Shown: piece by piece, positions 7,822 to 19,537 of the stretch
How the letters are laid out: the number at the start of each line of letters is the position of its first letter
How positions within the stretch are numbered: position 1 is the stretch's first letter
From: a virus
Virus record (IMG/VR): IMGVR_UViG_3300006793_000368
Span: 1-20,653 of that record
Length of the DNA: 20,653 nucleotides
Direction: 5' to 3' (one strand)
Translations under genes and position numbers: made by a program
Notes under the pieces: generated by a model
Told to the model about the DNA's origin: nothing
Databases searched by the model: none
The model's input: the letters and a program-made list of their open reading frames with translations, nothing else

Positions 7822-7850
7822 ATTTTAACTCATAAGTCCTTATTTGTCAA
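7822..7850 (-). promoter_or_regulatory. Near-consensus sigma70-type promoter at the junction of recognition and ejection genes
   Basis: On the minus strand: TTGACA (7850-7845, perfect -35), a 17-base spacer, TAAAAT (7827-7822, five of six -10 bases). The -35 overlaps the TGA stop of the 754-residue gene, and the -10 abuts the ATG of the 84-residue gene. Initiation about seven bases beyond the -10 would fall near 7815, inside that gene, so the main beneficiary would be the 674-residue gene and everything to its left. AT-rich DNA yields chance matches, but a perfect -35 with ideal spacing at a gene junction is uncommon. Confidence 0.45.
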
Positions 7851-10111
7851 GTCTTTACTAATAACTTTGTTGCAGAGATAGTAGTTCCTGCCAGTACACT
7901 TGGGCTATCTGCTGTTAAACTAAAACTTCCATCACTTGTTACATAAACGCTTTGACCTGCTGTAAGAGAAGATGGAGTATCAAATTCATACACACTGTCT
8001 GTAGCACCACCTGTTGCATAAAGTTTTGTTCCATCAGCACTAAATACAGCCCCTGTTATAGCGTTATCACTTACCTGTGTTAAAAAATCTTTACTTATAC
8101 CAGAATAAGAAGCGGAAGATAAATCAAAAGCAGTAGACAAATTATATTGAAACAACCCCTCAAGACCCCCATCTACAACAAAAAGTTTTGTTCCATCGTC
8201 ATTAAATGTTAAACCCAAAGGTACAGAGAATGTTCCAGATCCACTTAAAGCTACGTTGTTATAACTTAAAGAACTGGCTGATGTATCATAAGCAGTTGAT
8301 AAATCATATTCATAAATTTCGTCATTATCATTAGCAGCAACAAATACCTTTGAACCGTCATTATTAAACCTAATGCCTTGCGGATTACCTGTTTGTGAAG
8401 AAACGGAAGTAGTGTCTAAAAGGGTTATAGTTGAATTTAAATCAAACCCTGTAGATAAACTATACCTATTTATTTCATCACCTGACGAACCAACAATAAC
8501 CATAATAGTGCCTGATGGGTTAAACGTAAGTCCATTTGGAGAACCTTCTTGTGATCTAACATAATGAAAATACCCACTGTATGTTGCTGTAGATAAATCA
8601 AAGGCAGTAGACAAATTATATTGATTAACATCATCTTGGTTGTTATCTAATACAAATAAACGAGTACCATCTGGACTTATATCTATATCTGTAGGAGATG
8701 GGCCTTGCCCAGAAATATCTAATGATACACTATTGTAGGTTGAATTAACAATATCGTATGGAGCTTGCACTATCTCTGCGACACTACCTTTCGTGCCTAT
8801 AGTTGCACCCTTTGTGTCAGCTACAGCGCCACCTGTAGACACACCAATGTAATTCTCTGATGTGAGGGTTGTAGCGGTGTAGCCTGTCTGAAAAATAACG
8901 GCTTGACCTTCAGAAGTAGTGTCATCATAATAAACAATTACAACTTTTTGAGCGTTAGAATCATAGGCATTATGTATTTGACCTATTGTGTTTGTGTCAA
9001 AAGCCGCAGGAGTATCAAAAGAAATACTTGTACCACTCACTGCCCCACTTACTACAGTACCACTATCAGAGTTACTCCGATCTCTATAAGAAATTACTAC
9101 TTTCCCTGCACCACTGTCATAAGTAGTTGAAGTCACTCCATCCGAAATATTGCTTGATGTAAACTGAGCTTTTGTTCCAAACGTTGCAGAGGTTGAACCT
9201 ATTGTAGCAACAATTGCAGTCCCTTTATTTCCATCAGCACCGTCTGCAAATGAAATTACTACCTTTTGATTGCTTGAATCGTAAGCAGCAGATATTCTTA
9301 CAGCCGCTGAACTACCATTGAAAGATTGCCTAGTATTTACAGTTGGAACTAAATCCCCTGTTCCACCGACAGATATAACACAACAAAAACCATTATTAGA
9401 AGTATTCTCATCTTTGTGAGCAGTTACAAATCTTTCAGCACTAGCGTCATAAACAATGTCACCATCATTAAATAATCCACTTTCAAAAGTAACTGAACTA
9501 CCAAAAGTTAAAGATGTACCACTAACTTCACCAATAACAATTTCTCCATTATCACTTGCTGAAGAATTTTTATATATTATTCCCACTCTGTTTTTTGCAG
9601 AGTGATATGCAATTCTTGTAAGATTTTGTAATGCAGCAGTTTTGAAAATAACAGGTGTACCAAAACTAATACTTGTACCGCTTACTGTACCTACAACACC
9701 ATAGCCATAACCATTATTTACATTCTGATATGAAATAACAACCTTTTGGGCGGTGCTGTTATAAGTAATATCAACTAGATCTGAATAAGCTGAATCAAAT
9801 TGTGCAGGTGTACCAAAGCTAATAGATGTTCCGCTCACTGTTCCTACTATGGCATAACCCTGATTAGAGTTACCATTATCTCTATAAGCAATAACAACTT
9901 TCTGGGCATTAGCATCGTAAGCTACGGCAGGTCTTGTTAGTTGTGATCCTGTTATATTAACAGGAGTACCTACAGATTCAGAAGCAGAAGTCTTACTTAT
10001 AACACTCACAGTCCCATTTGAATTGATCACCACTGGCTTACCGCTTGGCAGTGTGCCACTCGCTACTGCTTTAAACTCACCACTCTCTTCAGCACCTATA
10101 CGTTTTAGCAT
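7847..10111 (-). CDS. Two-propeller receptor-binding/tail-appendage protein candidate (paralogue 3), 754 residues
   Basis: Third and largest of three paralogues. Layout: N-terminal flank (about 14-40, ASGTLPSGKPVVINSNGTVS); seven blades of 52-56 residues (about 53-410), each with a YDxxAQKVVIxY-type strand starting at 65, 117, 169, 221, 277, 331 and 383, and most with GTVSGTSISFGTP; hinge with TTLTSENYIG (413-422); an extra array of five repeats of about 52-54 residues (about 456-712) with DGTKLFV-type strands and the phrase YNLSTAFDLSTA; then the C-terminal flank (715-754, LTAGQSVYVTSDGSFS ... TISATKLLVK). Its siblings have nothing between hinge and flank, so the second array is an insertion. 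Likely role: host-surface or glycan binding at the tail or capsid, inferred from fold type and position after the fibre. No enzymatic motif is recognised. AAAGGG five bases before ATG at 10111 fixes the start. It contains CC at 243-244, whereas the ejection proteins lack Cys. Confidence 0.82.
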   Translation of the reverse strand: MLKRIGAEESGEFKAVASGTLPSGKPVVINSNGTVSVISKTSASESVGTPVNITGSQLTRPAVAYDANAQKVVIAYRDNGNSNQGYAIVGTVSGTSISFGTPAQFDSAYSDLVDITYNSTAQKVVISYQNVNNGYGYGVVGTVSGTSISFGTPVIFKTAALQNLTRIAYHSAKNRVGIIYKNSSASDNGEIVIGEVSGTSLTFGSSVTFESGLFNDGDIVYDASAERFVTAHKDENTSNNGFCCVISVGGTGDLVPTVNTRQSFNGSSAAVRISAAYDSSNQKVVISFADGADGNKGTAIVATIGSTSATFGTKAQFTSSNISDGVTSTTYDSGAGKVVISYRDRSNSDSGTVVSGAVSGTSISFDTPAAFDTNTIGQIHNAYDSNAQKVVIVYYDDTTSEGQAVIFQTGYTATTLTSENYIGVSTGGAVADTKGATIGTKGSVAEIVQAPYDIVNSTYNSVSLDISGQGPSPTDIDISPDGTRLFVLDNNQDDVNQYNLSTAFDLSTATYSGYFHYVRSQEGSPNGLTFNPSGTIMVIVGSSGDEINRYSLSTGFDLNSTITLLDTTSVSSQTGNPQGIRFNNDGSKVFVAANDNDEIYEYDLSTAYDTSASSLSYNNVALSGSGTFSVPLGLTFNDDGTKLFVVDGGLEGLFQYNLSTAFDLSSASYSGISKDFLTQVSDNAITGAVFSADGTKLYATGGATDSVYEFDTPSSLTAGQSVYVTSDGSFSLTADSPSVLAGTTISATKLLVKT
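7976..8746 (-). repeat. Five-repeat second propeller-like array inserted in the 754-residue protein
   Basis: Residues about 456-712 hold five repeats with DG or SG turns at 481, 533, 585, 639 and 693 (spacings 52, 52, 54, 54). Each has a GTxLFVxxxxxDxVxxY core, and most are followed by the signature LSTAFDLSTA. The pattern is like NHL/YVTN-type propeller blades and unlike the seven upstream blades. Five units is short for a closed propeller; blades 1 and 6 may be completed by the strands on either side. Confidence 0.8.
8882..9955 (-). repeat. Seven-blade propeller array of paralogue 3
   Basis: Residues about 53-410. The blade signature Y-D-x-x-A-Q-K-V-V starts at 65, 117, 169, 221, 277, 331 and 383, with spacings 52, 52, 52, 56, 54 and 52. 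Blades 3 and 4 are the most diverged (YHSAKNRVG, YDASAERFV). Seven units of this size predict a seven-bladed beta-propeller. Confidence 0.82.
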
Positions 10112-10113
10112 AG

Positions 10114-11604
10114 TTACCCTTTCACTATTAACTTTGTTGCCGATACAGCTGTACCTGCAAAGACGCTAGGACTAGCCGCTGTTGTACTTAGTGTGCCATC
10201 AGTCTGGACAAAGTAGCTTTGCCCTGCTGTCAGCCCTGAGAGGTTGTCAGCTATTGCACCTTGCGTGTTTATGATAGCCCCTGCACCAGAAGCAGCACCA
10301 GAACGAGTTATGCCTATGTAGTTTTCTGACGTAAGGGTTGTAGCGGTGTAGCCTACCTGAAACACGATACCTTTTCCATGCTCACTATCTCCGTCATCTT
10401 CAAAAGCAATCACGACTTTATTAGAATTACTATCAAATGTAGTTGTCGTGGACTCAGTATCACCAGATTCATAAGTAACAGCACTATCAAAACTTATTGT
10501 TGTTCCACTTATTTCTGCAACTTTTAAAGTTCCAGGTCCTTTAGTTCCACCACCACTTCTATCCATGTAAGTAAAAACTATCTTTTTTGCACTAGTATCA
10601 TAAACAGCCTGACCATCACGATTAGGAGTGTTATTTGTTGTTGCTTCATTAAAAATTACTGCCGTACCAAAACTTATGGAATCGTCTGAAGAATCAACTG
10701 TGCCAACAACGGCTGTACCATAATCAGAGTTGCCGTTATCGTGATGGAAAATAGCTACTTTATTATTGGTACTGTCAAATACTGAACACTGAAACTTTGC
10801 TACCCCTGCATTATTATATATAGCTTCTGTACCAAAAGTTATTGACGTTCCACTAACTTCGCCAACAATTGCTTTTCCTTTTTGATTAGTGGAATCTCCC
10901 CACCCAATAACAATTCTGTTAACGTTTGAATCAAAAGCTATACAAATGTATGCAGTGTTTTGACTATTAGCAAAATAAACTTCACTTCCAACACTTATAG
11001 ATGTACCAGAAACAGTTCCTACCACAGCCCTTCCATAATTACTAGCTGACCCATCCCGAAAAGCTATAACAACTTTATTAGTGCTAGAGTCAAATGCAAT
11101 AGCGTTGTAGCCTGATTGTCCACTACCAGAGGTAATGTTTATTTCTGAACCAAAAGTCATTGAGTTATCTGAAGCATCTACAGTACCAACAACAGCCCTA
11201 GGTCTAGTTCCATTATTCCAAGTAATTACAACTTTATTAGCATTTGAGTCAAAAGTTACAGCAGCATAGCTACCTTCTGTACTACTAATAACTCCAGGTG
11301 TACCAAAACTTATGGAGTTAGAACTAACAGTCCCTACAACATATGTGAGATAAAAACCGTTATCTCTGTCTGCATAAACAATAACGACTCTGTTTACGTT
11401 TGAATCAAATGTAGAAGAAATATAAGTAACTCTTGCAGATTCAAAAGTTACAGCACTTCCAATAGCTTGAGTTACGGAGCTTTCACTTATAACGCTTACA
11501 GTCCCATCTGCGTTCACAGTAACAGCTTTACCATCAGTCAAAGCACCAGAAGCTACAGCGTGTTCCTGTCTTGGTATACTTGGATCGTTACCAATGATAC
11601 GCAT
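10114..11604 (-). CDS. Seven-bladed propeller tail-appendage protein candidate (paralogue 2), 496 residues
   Basis: Same architecture as its neighbours without the extra array. N-terminal flank with ASGALTDGKAVTVNADGTVS (18-37); seven blades (about 54-417) whose FDSNxNKVVI-type strands start at 66, 118, 171, 224, 276, 335 and 390; hinge YTATTLTSENYIG (419-431); C-terminal flank LTAGQSYFVQTDGTLS (458-473) ending ATKLIVKG. It differs from paralogue 1 in using N/K rather than AQK in the blade signature, so the two are clearly diverged copies rather than a recent duplicate. Likely a virion surface or host-recognition protein, inferred from repeats, operon position and absence of catalytic motifs. 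AGGA six bases before ATG at 11604 supports the start. Its last codons, GTG AAA GGG, double as the ribosome site of the 754-residue gene 3 bases downstream. Confidence 0.82.
   Translation of the reverse strand: MRIIGNDPSIPRQEHAVASGALTDGKAVTVNADGTVSVISESSVTQAIGSAVTFESARVTYISSTFDSNVNRVVIVYADRDNGFYLTYVVGTVSSNSISFGTPGVISSTEGSYAAVTFDSNANKVVITWNNGTRPRAVVGTVDASDNSMTFGSEINITSGSGQSGYNAIAFDSSTNKVVIAFRDGSASNYGRAVVGTVSGTSISVGSEVYFANSQNTAYICIAFDSNVNRIVIGWGDSTNQKGKAIVGEVSGTSITFGTEAIYNNAGVAKFQCSVFDSTNNKVAIFHHDNGNSDYGTAVVGTVDSSDDSISFGTAVIFNEATTNNTPNRDGQAVYDTSAKKIVFTYMDRSGGGTKGPGTLKVAEISGTTISFDSAVTYESGDTESTTTTFDSNSNKVVIAFEDDGDSEHGKGIVFQVGYTATTLTSENYIGITRSGAASGAGAIINTQGAIADNLSGLTAGQSYFVQTDGTLSTTAASPSVFAGTAVSATKLIVKG
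10354..11445 (-). repeat. Seven-blade propeller array of paralogue 2
   Basis: Residues about 54-417. The signature F/Y-D-S-x-x-N-K-V-V starts at 66, 118, 171, 224, 276, 335 and 390 (spacings 52, 53, 53, 52, 59, 55). Blade 6 carries a Gly-rich loop (RSGGGTKGPG, 349-358) that lengthens it. Confidence 0.82.
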
Positions 11605-11612
11605 GTTGAGTC

Positions 11613-11882
11613 CTACTCTTCTTCTTCAGGCTCTACCCAATCAGGGTTAGCTGCCCAAGTTGTACCGTCAAAGGTATACTTGTTACCAAACCAATCACTA
11701 GGTGCATTAGTTACGTTTTCATAAATTGTGGTGTCTTGGCTTGAGTGGCAAGCAATTATATACGCAGGGTTACTTGCGTCTGGATTTCCAACCGTAATTT
11801 TTGCAGTAGTTGAAACTACTTCAACATTATCCTCTAACAAAAATTTACTTAACTTAGTTGATGTTTCTACAATAGTCTTCAT
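11613..11882 (-). CDS. Small tail-associated protein of unknown function between two propeller paralogues, 89 residues
   Basis: Compact, probably beta-rich protein. Residues 1-35 look like alternating strands (LSKFLLEDNVEVVSTTAKIT). It continues with TIYENV and the aromatic motif GNKYTFDGTTWAANPDW (66-82), and ends in an acidic tail VEPEEEE. From memory, small proteins starting MKTIVE and carrying YTFDGTTW-NPDW recur beside fibre genes of marine phages; the role is not established and I cannot check it. It could be a fibre accessory or assembly factor, or a small appendage subunit. It starts at ATG 11882, with AAAGG seven bases upstream supplied by the terminal codons of the 482-residue gene, and ends 8 bases before the 496-residue gene, so it is translated as part of the same unit. 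Confidence 0.78.
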   Translation of the reverse strand: MKTIVETSTKLSKFLLEDNVEVVSTTAKITVGNPDASNPAYIIACHSSQDTTIYENVTNAPSDWFGNKYTFDGTTWAANPDWVEPEEEE

Positions 11883-11885
11883 TAT

Positions 11886-13334
11886 TTAACCTTTCACTAT
11901 TAGTTCAGTAGCTGATATAGCAGTTCCTGCTGTTACTGAGGGGTCTGCTGCTGTTGTTCCAAGTGTGCCGTTTGTTTGTACAAAATAAGTTTGCCCTGCT
12001 GTGAGGCCACTTTGGTTTCTGTCTACTGTGTTAGTTGTGTTTATTGCTGCACTGCCAGTGTCTGCAAATGCACCGTCTGAGAAACCTATGAAGTTTTCTG
12101 AAGTTAAAGTTAGATTATTAAATCCTGCTTGGAAGATCACTGATGTTCCCTGAGAACTGTTACCCTCATCAGCATAAGCAATTGCAACTTTATTTTCAGA
12201 ACTATCAAATACACAGGCAGGGTAATCAATTTCTGCATTTTCAAACGTAGCCTTAGTGTCAAATGTAATAGATGTACCACTGACTACTCCACTTATTGCT
12301 GCTCCATAATTAGAATTACTCCCATCTACATAAGCAATTACTATTTTTTGAGCATTTGCGTCATATGTCATGCCAAGTCTATTAGTAGATGCATTGTTAA
12401 ATACCACTTCTGTACCAAAAGTAATATCTGTTCCGCTTATCGTTCCTACTATAGCCGTTCCTTTACTAGAATTGCCACTATCTTTATAAGCAACGACTAC
12501 CTTTTGTGCATTACTGTCATAGGCGGCTCTATTATTACGGCTATCTCCAGTATTATATACAGCCGAAGCCCCAAAACTAATAGATGTACCACTTATAGTT
12601 CCAACAATAGCAGTTCCGTAATTAGAATTACCAACATCTTTATAAACAAACACTACTTTTTGTGCATTAGCATCATAAGTTGCTCCCAGTTCATCGGGTC
12701 TACCACTATAAGCCGTTACCATTGTACCAAAGCTAATTGATGTTCCAGATACAGTTCCTACTATTGTTTCAAATTCACCGCTTACAGTATCATACCACCC
12801 AACTGCAGTTTTTTGAGCATTGACATCATAAACAGCAGTTATCGGAGTAGTGTTTACGGTGTTAAAAACTTCTGGACTTCCAAAAGATATGCTTGTTCCA
12901 CTTACAGTACCTACAATAGCAGTACCCCTACTAGAGTTTCCACCATCTCTATAAAAAATTACTACTTTTTGAGCGTTCTCATCATAAACTATGTTAATAT
13001 CACTGGTGTTACCAGTTTCAAAAACTTCTGGACTTCCAAAAGATATACTTGTTCCACTTACAGTACCAACCACTGCTGTCCCTTGTGATGAATTACCACT
13101 GTCTTTATAAGCAATAACTACTTTTTGTGCATTAGTATCGTATGCAATCGAATTCAAATCTGTCGCACCAGTTTCAAAAATTGCCGCAGATCCGACTGCT
13201 TGACTTACATCTCCTCCAGTAATAAGACTTACAGTTCCATCAGCATTAACAACAACAGGAGATCCATCAGTCAAAGCCCCAGAAGCTACCGCCCTGACCT
13301 GACCATCTTTCGCAATATTACCAAAAGCTTTCAT
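11886..13334 (-). CDS. Seven-bladed propeller tail-appendage protein candidate (paralogue 1), 482 residues
   Basis: The most regular of the three paralogues. N-terminal flank ASGALTDGSPVVVNADGTVS (17-36); seven blades (about 53-404) with YDxNAQKVVIAY at 65, 117, 169, 220, 272, 324 and 376, most followed by KDSGNSS-GTAIVGTVSGTSISFG; hinge LTLTSENFIG (408-417); C-terminal flank LTAGQTYFVQTNGTLG (444-459) ending ATELIVKG. Spacing of 51-52 residues throughout and near-identical neighbouring blades indicate expansion by unit duplication. No signal peptide, membrane span or enzyme motif. Likely a surface-exposed virion or adsorption protein acting with the fibre upstream; this is inference. The start ATG at 13334 has only a weak purine run (GAAAG) about ten bases upstream, unlike its siblings, so translation may depend on coupling to the gene ending 14 bases earlier. 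Confidence 0.82.
   Translation of the reverse strand: MKAFGNIAKDGQVRAVASGALTDGSPVVVNADGTVSLITGGDVSQAVGSAAIFETGATDLNSIAYDTNAQKVVIAYKDSGNSSQGTAVVGTVSGTSISFGSPEVFETGNTSDINIVYDENAQKVVIFYRDGGNSSRGTAIVGTVSGTSISFGSPEVFNTVNTTPITAVYDVNAQKTAVGWYDTVSGEFETIVGTVSGTSISFGTMVTAYSGRPDELGATYDANAQKVVFVYKDVGNSNYGTAIVGTISGTSISFGASAVYNTGDSRNNRAAYDSNAQKVVVAYKDSGNSSKGTAIVGTISGTDITFGTEVVFNNASTNRLGMTYDANAQKIVIAYVDGSNSNYGAAISGVVSGTSITFDTKATFENAEIDYPACVFDSSENKVAIAYADEGNSSQGTSVIFQAGFNNLTLTSENFIGFSDGAFADTGSAAINTTNTVDRNQSGLTAGQTYFVQTNGTLGTTAADPSVTAGTAISATELIVKG
12123..13178 (-). repeat. Seven-blade propeller array of paralogue 1, with near-identical adjacent units
   Basis: Residues about 53-404, seven signatures at 65, 117, 169, 220, 272, 324 and 376 (spacings 52, 52, 51, 52, 52, 52). 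At DNA level, 12864-12911 and 13020-13067 differ at one base in 48 and lie exactly 156 bp (52 codons) apart, marking the most recent unit duplication. Confidence 0.88.
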
Positions 13335-13348
13335 TAAGCTACTTTCTA

Positions 13349-13711
13349 TTAAGCGTCATCTATTTCTTCATATGAAAGAACAGCAGACAAGTCTCCTGCT
13401 GCACTTGCTTGTATTTTTAATATGTCGCTTTCATTTAAGTATAATCCCATGTTTTTATCAATAGGAAGTAAAGTACTACCTGCTGCAACTGTAATACCTT
13501 TAGCTATATAGTAGTCTACACTTGATCGTGTAATATATACATCTATATCAGCAGAGTTAGTGCCATCTATATTAGCTATAATTAACGAATTAATTTTACA
13601 TAATTTATTTGATGCACACGTTAGTAAACTAACTGCGCTTGCAGCAACGTCAGCATCTAGCACTGTTTGAGCTTGAATACTACTTACTGCAACTACATTT
13701 GGATTTGCCAT
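13349..13711 (-). CDS. Small beta-sandwich-like virion protein, 120 residues
   Basis: The sequence alternates short hydrophobic strands with turns: SLLTCASNKLCKINSLIIAN, then SADIDVYITRS, YYIAKGITVAAGSTLLPID, GLYLNESDILKIQA and DLSAVLSYEEIDDA. This layout (value readout, spread of strands, L.E.D.L, then a final SYEEI) is common in small structural proteins of marine tailed phages found near fibres. No enzymatic role is known to me. It lies between the long fibre and the propeller cluster and is probably a virion component or fibre accessory. It has two cysteines (52, 58) close together. The start ATG at 13711 is preceded by AAGGAG seven bases upstream, one of the strongest ribosome sites here, embedded in the last codons of the fibre gene, which suggests high expression relative to the fibre. 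Confidence 0.78.
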   Translation of the reverse strand: MANPNVVAVSSIQAQTVLDADVAASAVSLLTCASNKLCKINSLIIANIDGTNSADIDVYITRSSVDYYIAKGITVAAGSTLLPIDKNMGLYLNESDILKIQASAAGDLSAVLSYEEIDDA

Positions 13712-16721: not shown

Positions 16722-18275
16722 TTATAACCTATCTCCTACCCCAAATGTAATTACTAAACCTTGTATACTGTGTGAAGGTTTTGTGTCATTTGTAACATAT
16801 CTTATTGAAACTGATTTTCCTGATCCTGATACATTTGTTCTTCGTATAGGCGCAGGACTACCATCGTAAACAGCACCACTAGTAGCATCAGCAGCAGCAT
16901 ATGCAGCTTCGTTATAATAAGCAGCAGCATTTGCATTACTTATTGTAAAGTCATTGGGGTTTAATACATTTACATCTTCGTAATCATACACTGCTGACAT
17001 TAGTATTTCATTATCACCCTCAGAGCGTAAGTAAGTTGCTATAGTATAAAATATTTTACGTTGCTCTGGGTCTTCCATATAAAAATAAGGAGTTTGAAAA
17101 GCACTAAATATATCGCTTCCTCCAAAGTTATTACCTTTTTCTTGTCTATAAACTTTACCTGTACTATCTCCATGTAATACAAATTCGTTTTGTCCTATAT
17201 AACCACTGTCTGCACAGGTAGCTGTAATACCTAGTAATTGCCCATACTCAAACTGTAATCCATTAGGTGTTTGTCTAAATCCACCTATAATACCTTGCGT
17301 ATCAACAGCAGAGAAAAAATACCTGAATTGTGTTTTGCCTCTGACAACAACAGCATTTAAGCCATCTAAGTCAATATCAAAAACAACATCCGTAAAAACT
17401 GACTGAATGTCTTTTGATACAGTTTCTAGATTTACATCACCAATTTTATCTGTACCTGAAATAGGACGTAGACCATCCTGTGAAAGAAATAGTAAATCAC
17501 CACCTATTTCTATAACACTGTCTATAGCTAAACATCCAAGATTATCTGTAACTGATTCTAATACGAAATTAGAAATATTATTACCAACAAGCTTACGGAT
17601 GTTGTTAGTGCCAAAAATAAACAAAGCATCACGAAAAGTCTTTATTGCTACAACAGGAAAACCTACATTTATAACACCAGAACCGTTAGCAGCACTAAAG
17701 TCTGTTTCTGCTAAAGGTGCACTAAAATATAAATTAGTATCTTCGTTAGGATCACCTGCTAAAAATAAATGATTTTTACATATTGCGGATACTTTGGGAT
17801 CATCGGGGGCGTTAGCGTGTGTTATCTGAGTGTAAGTTGAGCCGTCATATGTAGCTGCAGGGTTTACTCCATCTGTAAGTATTACCTTTGGGCTACCAAA
17901 ATTATATTTAGTAAACCTAACTTTTGTTACACCTGACATGGTAGGTGATCCAGAAGTAGTTACGGCATCCCATGCACTTGTAGAGTTATTCCATTTATGT
18001 AAATAATTATTACCGCTAGAGGGAGTTCTACAAGCTAGTATGCCGTCATTAATACCATTAGCTACACAGACTCCAAGCACATTTCCTGTGCCTGTTACCG
18101 TTCCAAAATCATTACTAAATCCGCTTATCTTACGATAACCACCAGTAACAGAAGGCTCATAATTGGTAAGTTTTATAGCAGATCCAGGTGAAGTTTCACC
18201 TTGGGATAAAACATCTCTACTAGTGTTTAGCCCACCCTGACAGAAAACTTTAAATGATCCTAAATTATCTGGCAT
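16722..18275 (-). CDS. Tail nozzle/stabilisation-type protein, 517 residues
   Basis: It has the N-terminal pattern GGLNTSRDVL ... ATKLTNYEP-type motif (here GSAIKLTNYEPSVTGGYRKI, 31-50), which recurs in a conserved tail protein of marine podoviruses. I equate it by position and length with the P22 gp10 / T7 gp12 type nozzle that follows the adaptor. The body alternates beta strands and loops (LFIFGTNNIRKLVGNNISNF; GGDLLFLSQDGLRPISG), consistent with a propeller-like nozzle subunit. It ends with ITFGVGDRL. It contains several cysteines, unlike the ejection proteins. Its ATG (18275-18273) shares one base with the TAA of the adaptor gene and has no clear Shine-Dalgarno sequence, so translation is probably by coupled reinitiation. 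The assignment to gp10 rather than a general tail protein is inference. Confidence 0.72.
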   Translation of the reverse strand: MPDNLGSFKVFCQGGLNTSRDVLSQGETSPGSAIKLTNYEPSVTGGYRKISGFSNDFGTVTGTGNVLGVCVANGINDGILACRTPSSGNNYLHKWNNSTSAWDAVTTSGSPTMSGVTKVRFTKYNFGSPKVILTDGVNPAATYDGSTYTQITHANAPDDPKVSAICKNHLFLAGDPNEDTNLYFSAPLAETDFSAANGSGVINVGFPVVAIKTFRDALFIFGTNNIRKLVGNNISNFVLESVTDNLGCLAIDSVIEIGGDLLFLSQDGLRPISGTDKIGDVNLETVSKDIQSVFTDVVFDIDLDGLNAVVVRGKTQFRYFFSAVDTQGIIGGFRQTPNGLQFEYGQLLGITATCADSGYIGQNEFVLHGDSTGKVYRQEKGNNFGGSDIFSAFQTPYFYMEDPEQRKIFYTIATYLRSEGDNEILMSAVYDYEDVNVLNPNDFTISNANAAAYYNEAAYAAADATSGAVYDGSPAPIRRTNVSGSGKSVSIRYVTNDTKPSHSIQGLVITFGVGDRL

Positions 18276-19003
18276 TAAATTACACTATTAAAAGTACTAG
18301 ACTGTGGACGATTTATTACTGTTGATCTTACATATAAATTGTCATCCAATAATATTCGCCTCATTGCTTTTATACCTTCTTCAAAATTTTGTTGATGTAT
18401 AGCTGCGCTTTGTTCGTTGCTTCTAAATCTCATAACAAACATAATAGCACCATCAATTATAACATGTTTAAATCTATCAGGTATAATTGTTGTATCTGTA
18501 TGTAACGATAAATCTGCAGGAAAAGTAAAGTAAACATATTCTACTTCATACGCTGCATCAGTAAGAGGGGTAACACCAAACTTTTCTTCTAGTGTTTGAT
18601 AAACAAATAAAGGTTTACCTATACCATTTGTTTGATCTCCTTCATCATCTTGTGTACGATAATTTTGTATATAATCATTATAAGTTATTGTTTTAAGATG
18701 TCTAGGTGTATTATCTAGGCCACTGGTTTTTTTCAAAAAGAACGAATCCCAATCTACAGTACCCATGTCTGTAGGAAAATCATATGTTCTTTGGGCTATA
18801 GTTAATGTTTGAGTATTAGTTGTTTTTAAAAAAGGATATTCTTGACCGTCTTGTATTATTAATCTTATACTGTTATTTACAGCATCTTTAACTAGACCTT
18901 GTACATTACGTACAGTATCAAAACCGTCACCCGATATATCTAAGGTAACTTCATTAAGTCTTCGTAATGCATCGTTTACTAATGTAATGTACGTAGTTGC
19001 CAT
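18275..19003 (-). CDS. Head-tail adaptor, tail tubular protein A-like, 242 residues
   Basis: Begins MATTYITLVNDALRRLNEV and continues with a helical region (VRNVQGLVKDAVNNSIRLII), then QEYPFLKTTNTQTLTIAQRT and YDFPTDMGTVDWDSFF, and ends with a helical segment (FEEGIKAMRRILLDDNLYV). The leading helices, the QEWPFL-type motif and the YxFPTDM-type motif fit the T7 gp11 / P22 gp4-like adaptor family, which bridges portal and nozzle. Length is close to that usual for the family (about 190-260). Start: ATG at 19003 has AAGG eight bases upstream. A further in-frame TTG at 19036 would add 11 residues but lies within the hairpin at 19030-19050 and has no better ribosome site. It follows that hairpin, so its expression is probably below that of the capsid genes. 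Confidence 0.8.
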   Translation of the reverse strand: MATTYITLVNDALRRLNEVTLDISGDGFDTVRNVQGLVKDAVNNSIRLIIQDGQEYPFLKTTNTQTLTIAQRTYDFPTDMGTVDWDSFFLKKTSGLDNTPRHLKTITYNDYIQNYRTQDDEGDQTNGIGKPLFVYQTLEEKFGVTPLTDAAYEVEYVYFTFPADLSLHTDTTIIPDRFKHVIIDGAIMFVMRFRSNEQSAAIHQQNFEEGIKAMRRILLDDNLYVRSTVINRPQSSTFNSVI

Positions 19004-19029
19004 TTGTATAACCTTTAAATAAGATGAAA

Positions 19030-19050
19030 GGGGCAAGTTGCCCTGCCCCC
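19030..19050 (-). terminator. Probable intrinsic terminator/attenuator after the capsid genes
   Basis: On the minus strand, GGGGC (19049-19045) pairs with GCCCC (19034-19030) around a 10-base loop, extendable by G-U and A-U pairs. An alternative inner hairpin, GGGCA-ACT-TGCCC, overlaps it. A broken U-rich tail (TTTCATCTTATTT) follows. It lies 11 bases after the stop of the capsid-associated gene and before the adaptor gene. The interrupted tail suggests partial termination with read-through. Confidence 0.6.
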
Positions 19051-19060
19051 TAAAGTTTAA

Positions 19061-19537
19061 TTATGCGAGTGTGTCACGATCTACTTCATTAGCAGTCATT
19101 TCACCAAGTGCACTAACATCCATCATTACTGCGTACACACGTAGTGTACCTGCAGTAAATGATGCACCTGAACCTGCAAGAGTTACATCAAGTGTATCTG
19201 CAGAAGTAATTACTATTTCACCAGAAGTAGTAACTAATGGTGCATATGCCCCATCAGAAGCACCGTCAATGTCAAATACATTAACGTACTCATTTGGGTC
19301 TACAGCAGTTCCTAAACTTGCAGTAGCATCAGTACCAGAGTTCTGAGTAGCAGAAGATGTTACTTGAACACCTGCAGTAACAATATGTGTATTTGCAGGA
19401 ACAGTAAGAGCCTGTACTACATCACCTGGGGCAATGCTGTTTGCAGTCAGATCAATGGTTTGTTCCACCATGTAAGGCTGTCGCCCACGTGAGTCACTCC
19501 CATGTGCAGGAGCTAGAGTTGCGGTAATAGTTGCCAT
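19061..19537 (-). CDS. Capsid-associated (putative decoration) protein, 158 residues
   Basis: Second gene of the head unit, directly after the capsid gene. The sequence is predicted almost all beta: MVEQTIDLTANSIAPGDVVQ, then ALTVPANTHIVTAGVQVTSS, ATASLGTAVDPNEYVNVFDI, GEIVITSADTLDVTL, and a final strand LRVYAVMMDVSAL. Similar small beta-rich proteins after the major capsid gene are common in marine podoviruses and are usually taken as head decoration or minor structural proteins; I cannot confirm decoration here. No cysteine or enzymatic motif. Its ribosome site AAAGGAGG, eight bases before ATG at 19537, is the strongest in the window and overlaps the capsid stop codon, which fits a protein needed at copy numbers similar to the capsid. 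Confidence 0.78.
   Translation of the reverse strand: MATITATLAPAHGSDSRGRQPYMVEQTIDLTANSIAPGDVVQALTVPANTHIVTAGVQVTSSATQNSGTDATASLGTAVDPNEYVNVFDIDGASDGAYAPLVTTSGEIVITSADTLDVTLAGSGASFTAGTLRVYAVMMDVSALGEMTANEVDRDTLA

What the first reader, a model, noticed from the sequence alone, without database searches (positions are those of the whole stretch)
7976..8746. A second, unrelated propeller-like array inserted between hinge and C-terminal flank of one paralogue
In the 482- and 496-residue paralogues the hinge runs within 30-40 residues into the LTAGQ flank. In the 754-residue protein about 260 residues with five repeats of a different class (DGTKLFV ... YNLSTAFDLSTA) lie exactly there, and flank and hinge remain intact on both sides. 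This is a clean domain insertion that makes a double-propeller protein, a plausible route to a new receptor specificity.
Basis: seen in the sequence. Interest (0 to 1): 0.62.

Follow-up and report, generated by a model that had tools for sequence, protein, structure and literature searches.

The report
Plug-in propellers on phage decoration-type scaffold
A marine virus protein is built on a small scaffold, of the kind that coats virus shells, with ring-shaped propeller domains plugged into its loops; near-identical wild viruses carry or lack the same plug-in, so this looks like a natural swap system for surface adhesins.

Summary
The 754-aa protein (7847-10111, minus strand) carries a five-repeat array (residues 447-713, nt 7973-8773) that its 496- and 482-aa paralogues lack. 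Repeat class, boundaries and count check out; the class is unrelated in sequence to the first array.

The interpretation needs rebuilding. N-cap, "hinge" and "LTAGQ flank" are not separate elements. They are one ~115-aa beta domain, which also occurs alone, with no propeller, in other viruses. Its predicted fold matches phage capsid decoration/head-fibre base domains (Phage_cement families). Both propellers are insertions into its loops: seven-bladed class A usually in loop 1, five-bladed class B in the window in loop 2b. Elsewhere class B sits in loop 1 or loop 3, and class A in loop 2a or 2b.

The best evidence for modular gain or loss is two viral contigs that are 99.7% identical over 5.8 kb up to the exact junction codon. 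One then has 803 bp of class-B propeller where the other has 14 bp. The virus is an HMO-2011-type marine podovirus.

Most likely role: a virion-displayed adhesin with swappable glycan- or receptor-binding propellers. Binding and head-versus-tail location are inferred, not shown.

The parts
9992..10111 (-). N-cap of the scaffold domain, residues 1-40 of the 754-aa protein (AVASGTLPSGKPVVINSNGTVSVIS); DNA conserved with relatives up to about nt 10001
   Evidence: strands E12-17, E26-29, E35-37 shared with the propeller-free protein; DNA islands end at 10001/9999 in L320, L279, L316
8870..9964 (-). Class A propeller in loop 1, residues 50-414; seven four-stranded blades, N-terminal strand 51-57 predicted to complete blade 7
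8774..8872 (-). Hinge = scaffold strands 4-5, residues 414-446 (TTLTSENYIG...GSVAE)
7973..8773 (-). Inserted class B array in loop 2b, residues 447-713; five blades, N-terminal strand 458-465 predicted to complete blade 5
7850..7972 (-). LTAGQ flank = last scaffold strands, residues 714-754
10114..11604 (-). 496-aa paralogue: same scaffold, class A in loop 1, no second propeller
11886..13334 (-). 482-aa paralogue: same scaffold, class A in loop 1, no second propeller
11613..11882 (-). 89-aa conserved partner gene between the paralogues, function unknown (candidate assembly factor)
   Evidence: 182 tblastn matches in the fetched loci; no Pfam or PHROG family

Best explanation
The 754-aa protein is a virion-displayed modular adhesin. 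Its core is a ~115-aa all-beta scaffold of the phage decoration/cement (beta-tulip-like) type, made from the N-cap, hinge and LTAGQ flank together. Self-closing beta-propellers, whose N and C termini lie side by side, are plugged into successive surface loops of that scaffold: a seven-bladed class A in loop 1 and, here, a five-bladed class B (SGL/lactonase-like repeats) in loop 2b. The scaffold segments stay conserved at DNA level and act as homology arms, so propellers are gained, lost or exchanged in frame by recombination between paralogues and between co-infecting phages. The propellers most likely bind host-surface glycans or receptors, and a second propeller adds a second binding specificity or avidity. 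Shown here: the insertion, the module boundaries, the presence/absence pairs, the predicted folds. Inferred: ring closure (from strand pattern), recombination as mechanism, display on the virion, ligand binding.
For: Insert and boundaries. Propeller-free scaffold proteins of 110-117 aa, and one scaffold with another large domain in loop 1. Near-isogenic pair: L009 and L038 share 5809 bp at 99.7% up to codon 448, then 803 bp of class B against 14 bp, then 92% identity over 229 bp; L147 and L069 give the same insert-free allele, and their downstream DNA matches L009 at 98%. Site-1 pair: L192 (empty) and L196 (class A), 93% and 95% DNA identity on either side of the propeller. Across 237 proteins N-cap, hinge and flank identities covary (rho 0.52-0.56) but barely with the class-A array (0.08-0.13). 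Class B at site 2b, site 3, site 1 and the C-terminal end. On the N-half tree the class-B label needs at least 17 changes for 20 rows, 11 forced by strongly supported branches. Models: P0001 pLDDT 91.9, empty scaffold 87.9. The 18 best PDB fold hits of the scaffold are phage/virus head proteins, mostly decoration, cement or head-fibre base proteins. Pfam cement families hit 13 of 29 scaffolds, sub-threshold.
Against: No binding, virion or expression data exist. Scaffold fold E-values are modest (best 1.1e-3) and Pfam scores stay below cut-off. Presence/absence pairs do not say whether gain or loss happened. The N-half tree is built on repeats that may themselves recombine. Sequences are metagenomic contigs, although the same architectures recur in independent assemblies.
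Confidence: 0.72

Rival explanations
1. Tail-fibre/receptor-binding reading: these proteins are distal adhesins of the short tail, and the decoration-like scaffold is only a shared structural adaptor. The second propeller changes host range directly.
For: Genes lie downstream of the long tail-fibre gene in the tail module, and the same region of HMO-2011 and roseophages is annotated as tail fibre. The scaffold fold also occurs in fibre proteins with collagen, intramolecular-chaperone or Mtd-N parts. ICBM2 gp49 has the same scaffold and class-A propeller behind a 53-aa N-terminal extension that I read as tail-fibre-like. Five-bladed propeller RBP of phage phi11 (PMC4901313).
Against: Solved matches of the scaffold are capsid decoration or head-fibre base proteins; cement Pfam families lead the sequence hits.
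Confidence: 0.45
2. Head-fibre/decoration reading: the proteins sit on the capsid as trimers, and the propellers give many weak contacts with host cell surface or extracellular glycan, like Hoc, phi29 gp8.5 or RcGTA head spikes.
For: Fold hits: Adjutor, Pam3 cement, HFTV1, TW1 gp56, phi29 gp8.5 base, Sf11, lambda gpD, SHP; BFVD hits include DUF2190, head fiber and minor capsid proteins; known precedents for head adhesins (PMC7602432, PMC7296036).
Against: Gene position is not next to the capsid genes; the fold is also used in tail fibres.
Confidence: 0.4
3. Deletion reading: a double-propeller protein is ancestral, and the 482/496-aa paralogues lost the second propeller.
For: Positional counterparts of the third gene in L279, L316, L320, L321/L326 are also double-propeller proteins, with class A.
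Against: Those second arrays are class A and, in the A+A proteins inspected, sit mostly in another loop, so class B at loop 2b is not the shared state; insert-free proteins dominate (197 of 261); class B occurs scattered at several sites.
Confidence: 0.1
4. Assembly chimera: the contig joins two genes wrongly.
For: Repeats favour misassembly.
Against: One open frame throughout; the same architecture at the same loop in L009, L200, L201/L202, L205, L206 and L011 from different samples.
Confidence: 0.03

Closest known systems
Phage decoration/cement proteins with beta-tulip fold (lambda gpD, SHP, TW1 gp56, phi29 gp8.5 base; Pfam PF09956, PF22758)
   Same: Predicted fold and size of the propeller-free scaffold; the best PDB fold matches are almost all of this kind; weak sequence matches over full length
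   Different: Here the domain is split by large propellers in its loops, which I did not find described; sequence scores stay below family cut-offs; capsid binding unknown
Five-bladed propeller receptor-binding protein Gp45 of Staphylococcus phage phi11 (PMC4901313)
   Same: Five four-stranded blades, closed by the N-terminal strand joining three C-terminal strands
   Different: phi11 has a triple-helical stem, platform and tower; here the propeller is a loop insertion in a small beta scaffold, and no homology was shown
SGL/SMP-30, Lactonase and YVTN surface-layer propellers (PF08450, PF10282, PDB 1l0q)
   Same: Class B repeats score above the Pfam cut-offs and match 1l0q at E 1.9e-9
   Different: Five blades rather than six or seven; no test of catalytic residues; phage-borne and mobile between loops
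Class B propellers in isolate phages: Roseobacter phage CRP-13 gp43 and CRP-9 gp42, Lentibacter phage ICBM2 gp51
   Same: Same repeat class, 33-41% identity, near-constant groups of five
   Different: There they sit in long fibre-like or small proteins without this scaffold
Metaviromic islands / shuffled receptor-binding domains in phages (PMC3909814, PMC10684548)
   Same: Host-recognition genes vary between nearly identical marine phages; domain shuffling is known
   Different: Here the exchanged unit, its exact junctions and the scaffold loops that accept it are resolved

Membership tests
Phage cement / beta-tulip decoration proteins | Fold of the domain | tested here: met
   Propeller-free L189 model (pLDDT 87.9): top 18 PDB matches are phage/virus head proteins, mostly decoration or head-fibre base domains, best E 1.1e-3, probability 1.00, TM 0.6
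Phage cement / beta-tulip decoration proteins | Score above Pfam cut-off of PF09956 or PF22758 | tested here: not met
   Best E 4.8e-4 and 1.7e-3; 13 of 29 members hit each family at E up to 1; the full tables for empty proteins show scores below cut-off
Phage cement / beta-tulip decoration proteins | Trimer bound to the capsid | not testable with these tools
   No virion data
SGL / Lactonase beta-propellers | Repeat sequence above Pfam cut-off | tested here: met
   Insert alone: PF08450 36.2 bits (cut-off 26.3), PF10282 24.3 bits (cut-off 21.7)
SGL / Lactonase beta-propellers | Six or seven blades | tested here: not met
   Five blades by DSSP and by group counts
SGL / Lactonase beta-propellers | Catalytic metal site | not tested
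   Not examined
Five-bladed phage RBP propellers (phi11 type) | Five 4-stranded blades closed by the N-terminal strand | tested here: inconclusive
   Strand order and repeat counts fit; strand pairing not inspected, coordinates unavailable
Five-bladed phage RBP propellers (phi11 type) | Binds host receptor | not testable with these tools
   No assay
HMO-2011-type phages | Capsid protein and structural gene order | tested here: met
   Coat protein 78% identical to HMO-2011 and CRP-345; tail module follows in similar order
HMO-2011-type phages | Family A DNA polymerase and other core replication genes | not testable with these tools
   Outside this 20.6-kb fragment

The most novel reading that the evidence does not exclude
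A decoration-type domain works as a universal docking frame: at least four successive loops accept self-closing propellers of unrelated classes, giving marine viruses an exchangeable library of one- and two-propeller adhesins displayed on the capsid rather than on the tail.
Probability: 0.35. Interest if true: 0.75.

Novelty: new variant of a known kind. Interest (0 to 1): 0.6.

Why it matters
It resolves to the codon how abundant marine phages change a surface-exposed module: a conserved small scaffold, propellers with adjacent termini, and natural near-isogenic alleles with and without the propeller. That makes the question of what one exchanged domain does for host choice directly testable. 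It also shows that conserved 'hinge' and 'flank' pieces hundreds of residues apart can be one domain.

Tried and rejected
Chance or low-complexity repeats: rejected. Class B as a divergent copy of class A: no profile similarity. My first reading that all second class-A arrays share the window's insertion point (notebook): wrong. In 28 of 30 inspected they sit one loop earlier (between ENYIGMSxG and strand 5); only L048 and L161 use the window's junction. A scaffold-HMM chaining script to map insertion loops automatically failed for double-propeller proteins and was replaced by reading the junctions. The whole-protein fold search of P0001 returned only eukaryotic tandem WD40/YWTD proteins with low TM: it says 'double propeller', nothing on function. 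The scaffold profile against PDB sequences gave only a short partial match to an adhesin (6vs7, E 0.005) and chance matches. Cellular genomes: one match, in a contig binned to a Euryarchaeota MAG; its viral origin was not checked. Pfam Cyclophil_like2 hits on class-A repeats cover only about 35 residues inside a repeat and were taken as spurious.

Full report
WHAT WAS CLAIMED AND CHECKED. The window is a 20,653-bp virus record. Its 754-aa protein P0001 (7847-10111, minus strand) and the 496-aa P0002 and 482-aa P0003 are paralogues, 42-46% identical to P0001. P0001 alone has an extra block, residues 447-713 (nt 7973-8773), between the hinge (LTSENYIG...GSVAE) and the flank (SSLTAGQ...). In the other two only a few residues lie there. 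A repeat model trained without the window finds five repeats in the block (full E 8.5e-68) and nothing comparable in 200 shuffles or in the paralogues. The class is unrelated to the first array by profile comparison and belongs to the SGL/Lactonase propeller group (nearest solved relative by sequence the surface-layer protein 1l0q, E 1.9e-9; that 1l0q is a YVTN-type propeller is from my own knowledge).

WHERE IT SITS. The coat protein is 78% identical to those of SAR116 phage HMO-2011 and Roseobacter phage CRP-345, and the gene order matches their structural module. The window is therefore a piece of an HMO-2011-type podovirus. The three paralogues lie between a 997-aa structural/fibre gene and a small DUF6127, holin-like gene. 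In those isolates the same interval is annotated as tail fibre and hypothetical proteins.

THE SCAFFOLD IS ONE DOMAIN. Scans of viral contigs gave 261 full-length homologues: 197 with one class-A array, 40 with two class-A arrays, 17 with class A plus class B, 2 with class B in place of class A, and 3 with no propeller at all. The propeller-free proteins (L121:2418-2768, L189:2608-2958, L192:4501-4830) are N-cap joined directly to hinge and flank, 110-117 aa. L189 folds in AlphaFold2 as a compact beta domain (pLDDT 87.9). In the full P0001 model (pLDDT 91.9) the same strands reappear in N-cap, hinge and flank. Across 237 proteins the three pieces covary in sequence (rho 0.52-0.56), although hundreds of residues separate them, while the class-A array lying between them covaries hardly at all with the scaffold (0.08-0.13; permutation maxima about 0.1). 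They are one domain, and the propellers are loop insertions.

WHAT THE SCAFFOLD RESEMBLES. The best 18 PDB fold matches are phage or virus head proteins, mostly decoration, cement or head-fibre base domains: Adjutor, Pam3, HFTV1, TW1, phi29 gp8.5, YSD1, Sf11, lambda gpD, SHP. E-values are modest (best 1.1e-3), probability mostly 0.9-1.0. Pfam's Phage_cement_2 and Phage_cement are the leading families for excised scaffolds, sub-threshold, 13 of 29 each. In predicted viral structures the fold also occurs in fibre proteins. ICBM2 gp49, from a Lentibacter isolate, has the same scaffold and class-A propeller behind an N-terminal extension of about 50 residues that looks tail-fibre-like to me. Head or tail location therefore stays open.

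THE PROPELLERS CLOSE ON THEMSELVES. DSSP of the P0001 model gives four strands per repeat. Class A has seven units, the last completed by strand 51-57; class B has five, the last completed by strand 458-465 (pairing inferred, coordinates not available). In homologues, class-B repeats come in groups of five in 52 of 66 groups, including long proteins with several separate groups of five. The five-bladed receptor-binding propeller of phage phi11 closes in the same manner (PMC4901313). Adjacent termini explain why a propeller fits into a loop.

SEVERAL LOOPS ARE USED. Class A is usually in loop 1. Second class-A arrays are mostly in loop 2a (28 of 30 inspected) and twice in loop 2b, exactly the window's junction (L048, L161). 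Class B is in loop 2b (window, L009, L200, L201/L202, L205, L206, L011), in loop 3 inside the flank (L010, L203, L207, L208, L231, L244, L260 and others), at the C-terminal end (L045) and in loop 1 (L108). On a tree of the N-terminal half, class B needs at least 17 changes for 20 rows, 11 forced by strongly supported branches. The tree rests on repeats, so the count is indicative.

NATURAL PRESENCE/ABSENCE PAIRS. L009 and L038 are 99.7% identical over 5809 bp up to codon 448. L009 then has 803 bp of class B where L038 has 14 bp (a difference of 789 bp, 263 codons, in frame), followed by 92% identity over 229 bp. L147 and L069 carry the insert-free allele of the same gene, and L009's downstream DNA matches L147 and L069 at 98%. 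For loop 1, L192 (empty) and L196 (class A) agree at 93% and 95% on either side of the propeller. Against HMO-2011-type relatives, conserved DNA islands in the window run from one gene's hinge/flank into the next gene's N-cap and stop at the propeller edge (window 10339-10001 in L320 and L279, 10356-9999 in L316). This fits homologous recombination in the scaffold parts; the mechanism is inferred.

GAIN, LOSS OR SWAP FOR THE WINDOW. Insert-free is the commonest state, also for proteins with the window's scaffold type (N-terminus MLKRIGA: none 14, two class A 11, class B 1 = the window). In four syntenic relatives the third gene is a double class-A protein (L279, L316, L320, L321/L326). So the slot-bearing third gene is often double, and class B at loop 2b is the window's own variant. 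Direction cannot be fixed from these data.

FUNCTION. Propellers on phage surface proteins bind host glycans in known cases (PMC4901313); head decorations can aid adhesion (PMC7602432, PMC7296036); host-recognition genes are the variable islands of marine phages (PMC3909814); and domain shuffling is concentrated in receptor-binding proteins (PMC10684548). The best-supported reading is a virion-displayed adhesin whose binding modules are exchanged as whole propellers. Ligand and location are untested.

NOVELTY. Domain shuffling in phage adhesins and propeller RBPs are known. In the papers found I saw no description of a decoration-type scaffold with several loops that accept unrelated propellers. 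That is a limited search of open-access papers.

Noticed in passing
window 11613-11882 (-): 89-aa gene between two paralogues (MKTIVETSTKLSKFLL...DWVEPEEEE) is conserved next to scaffold genes (182 matches in fetched loci) and matches no Pfam or PHROG family; candidate assembly partner.
   Followed up: partly
L117:10054-13728 (-), L119:10045-13782 (-): Long proteins of Roseobacter phages CRP-13 and CRP-9 hold about fifteen class-B repeats in three blocks (three five-bladed propellers in a row), annotated only as hypothetical.
   Followed up: partly
L258:6853-8478 (+): The same scaffold carries a different, unidentified domain of about 430 residues in loop 1 instead of a class-A propeller.
   Followed up: no
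window 18275-19036 (-): Gene matches the SU10 adaptor family (PF24175, E 9e-20), a head-tail connector; its counterparts in HMO-2011 and CRP-1/9/13 records are annotated as hypothetical.
   Followed up: no
window 13349-13711 (-) and 19061-19537 (-): Two small proteins in the structural module have no significant family match (P0005 only a weak PHROG hit); possibly further decoration proteins.
   Followed up: no
L346 (PBTA01000007.1): Only match of the hinge-flank pair in bacterial/archaeal genomes lies in a Euryarchaeota MAG contig, perhaps a misbinned marine virus.
   Followed up: no
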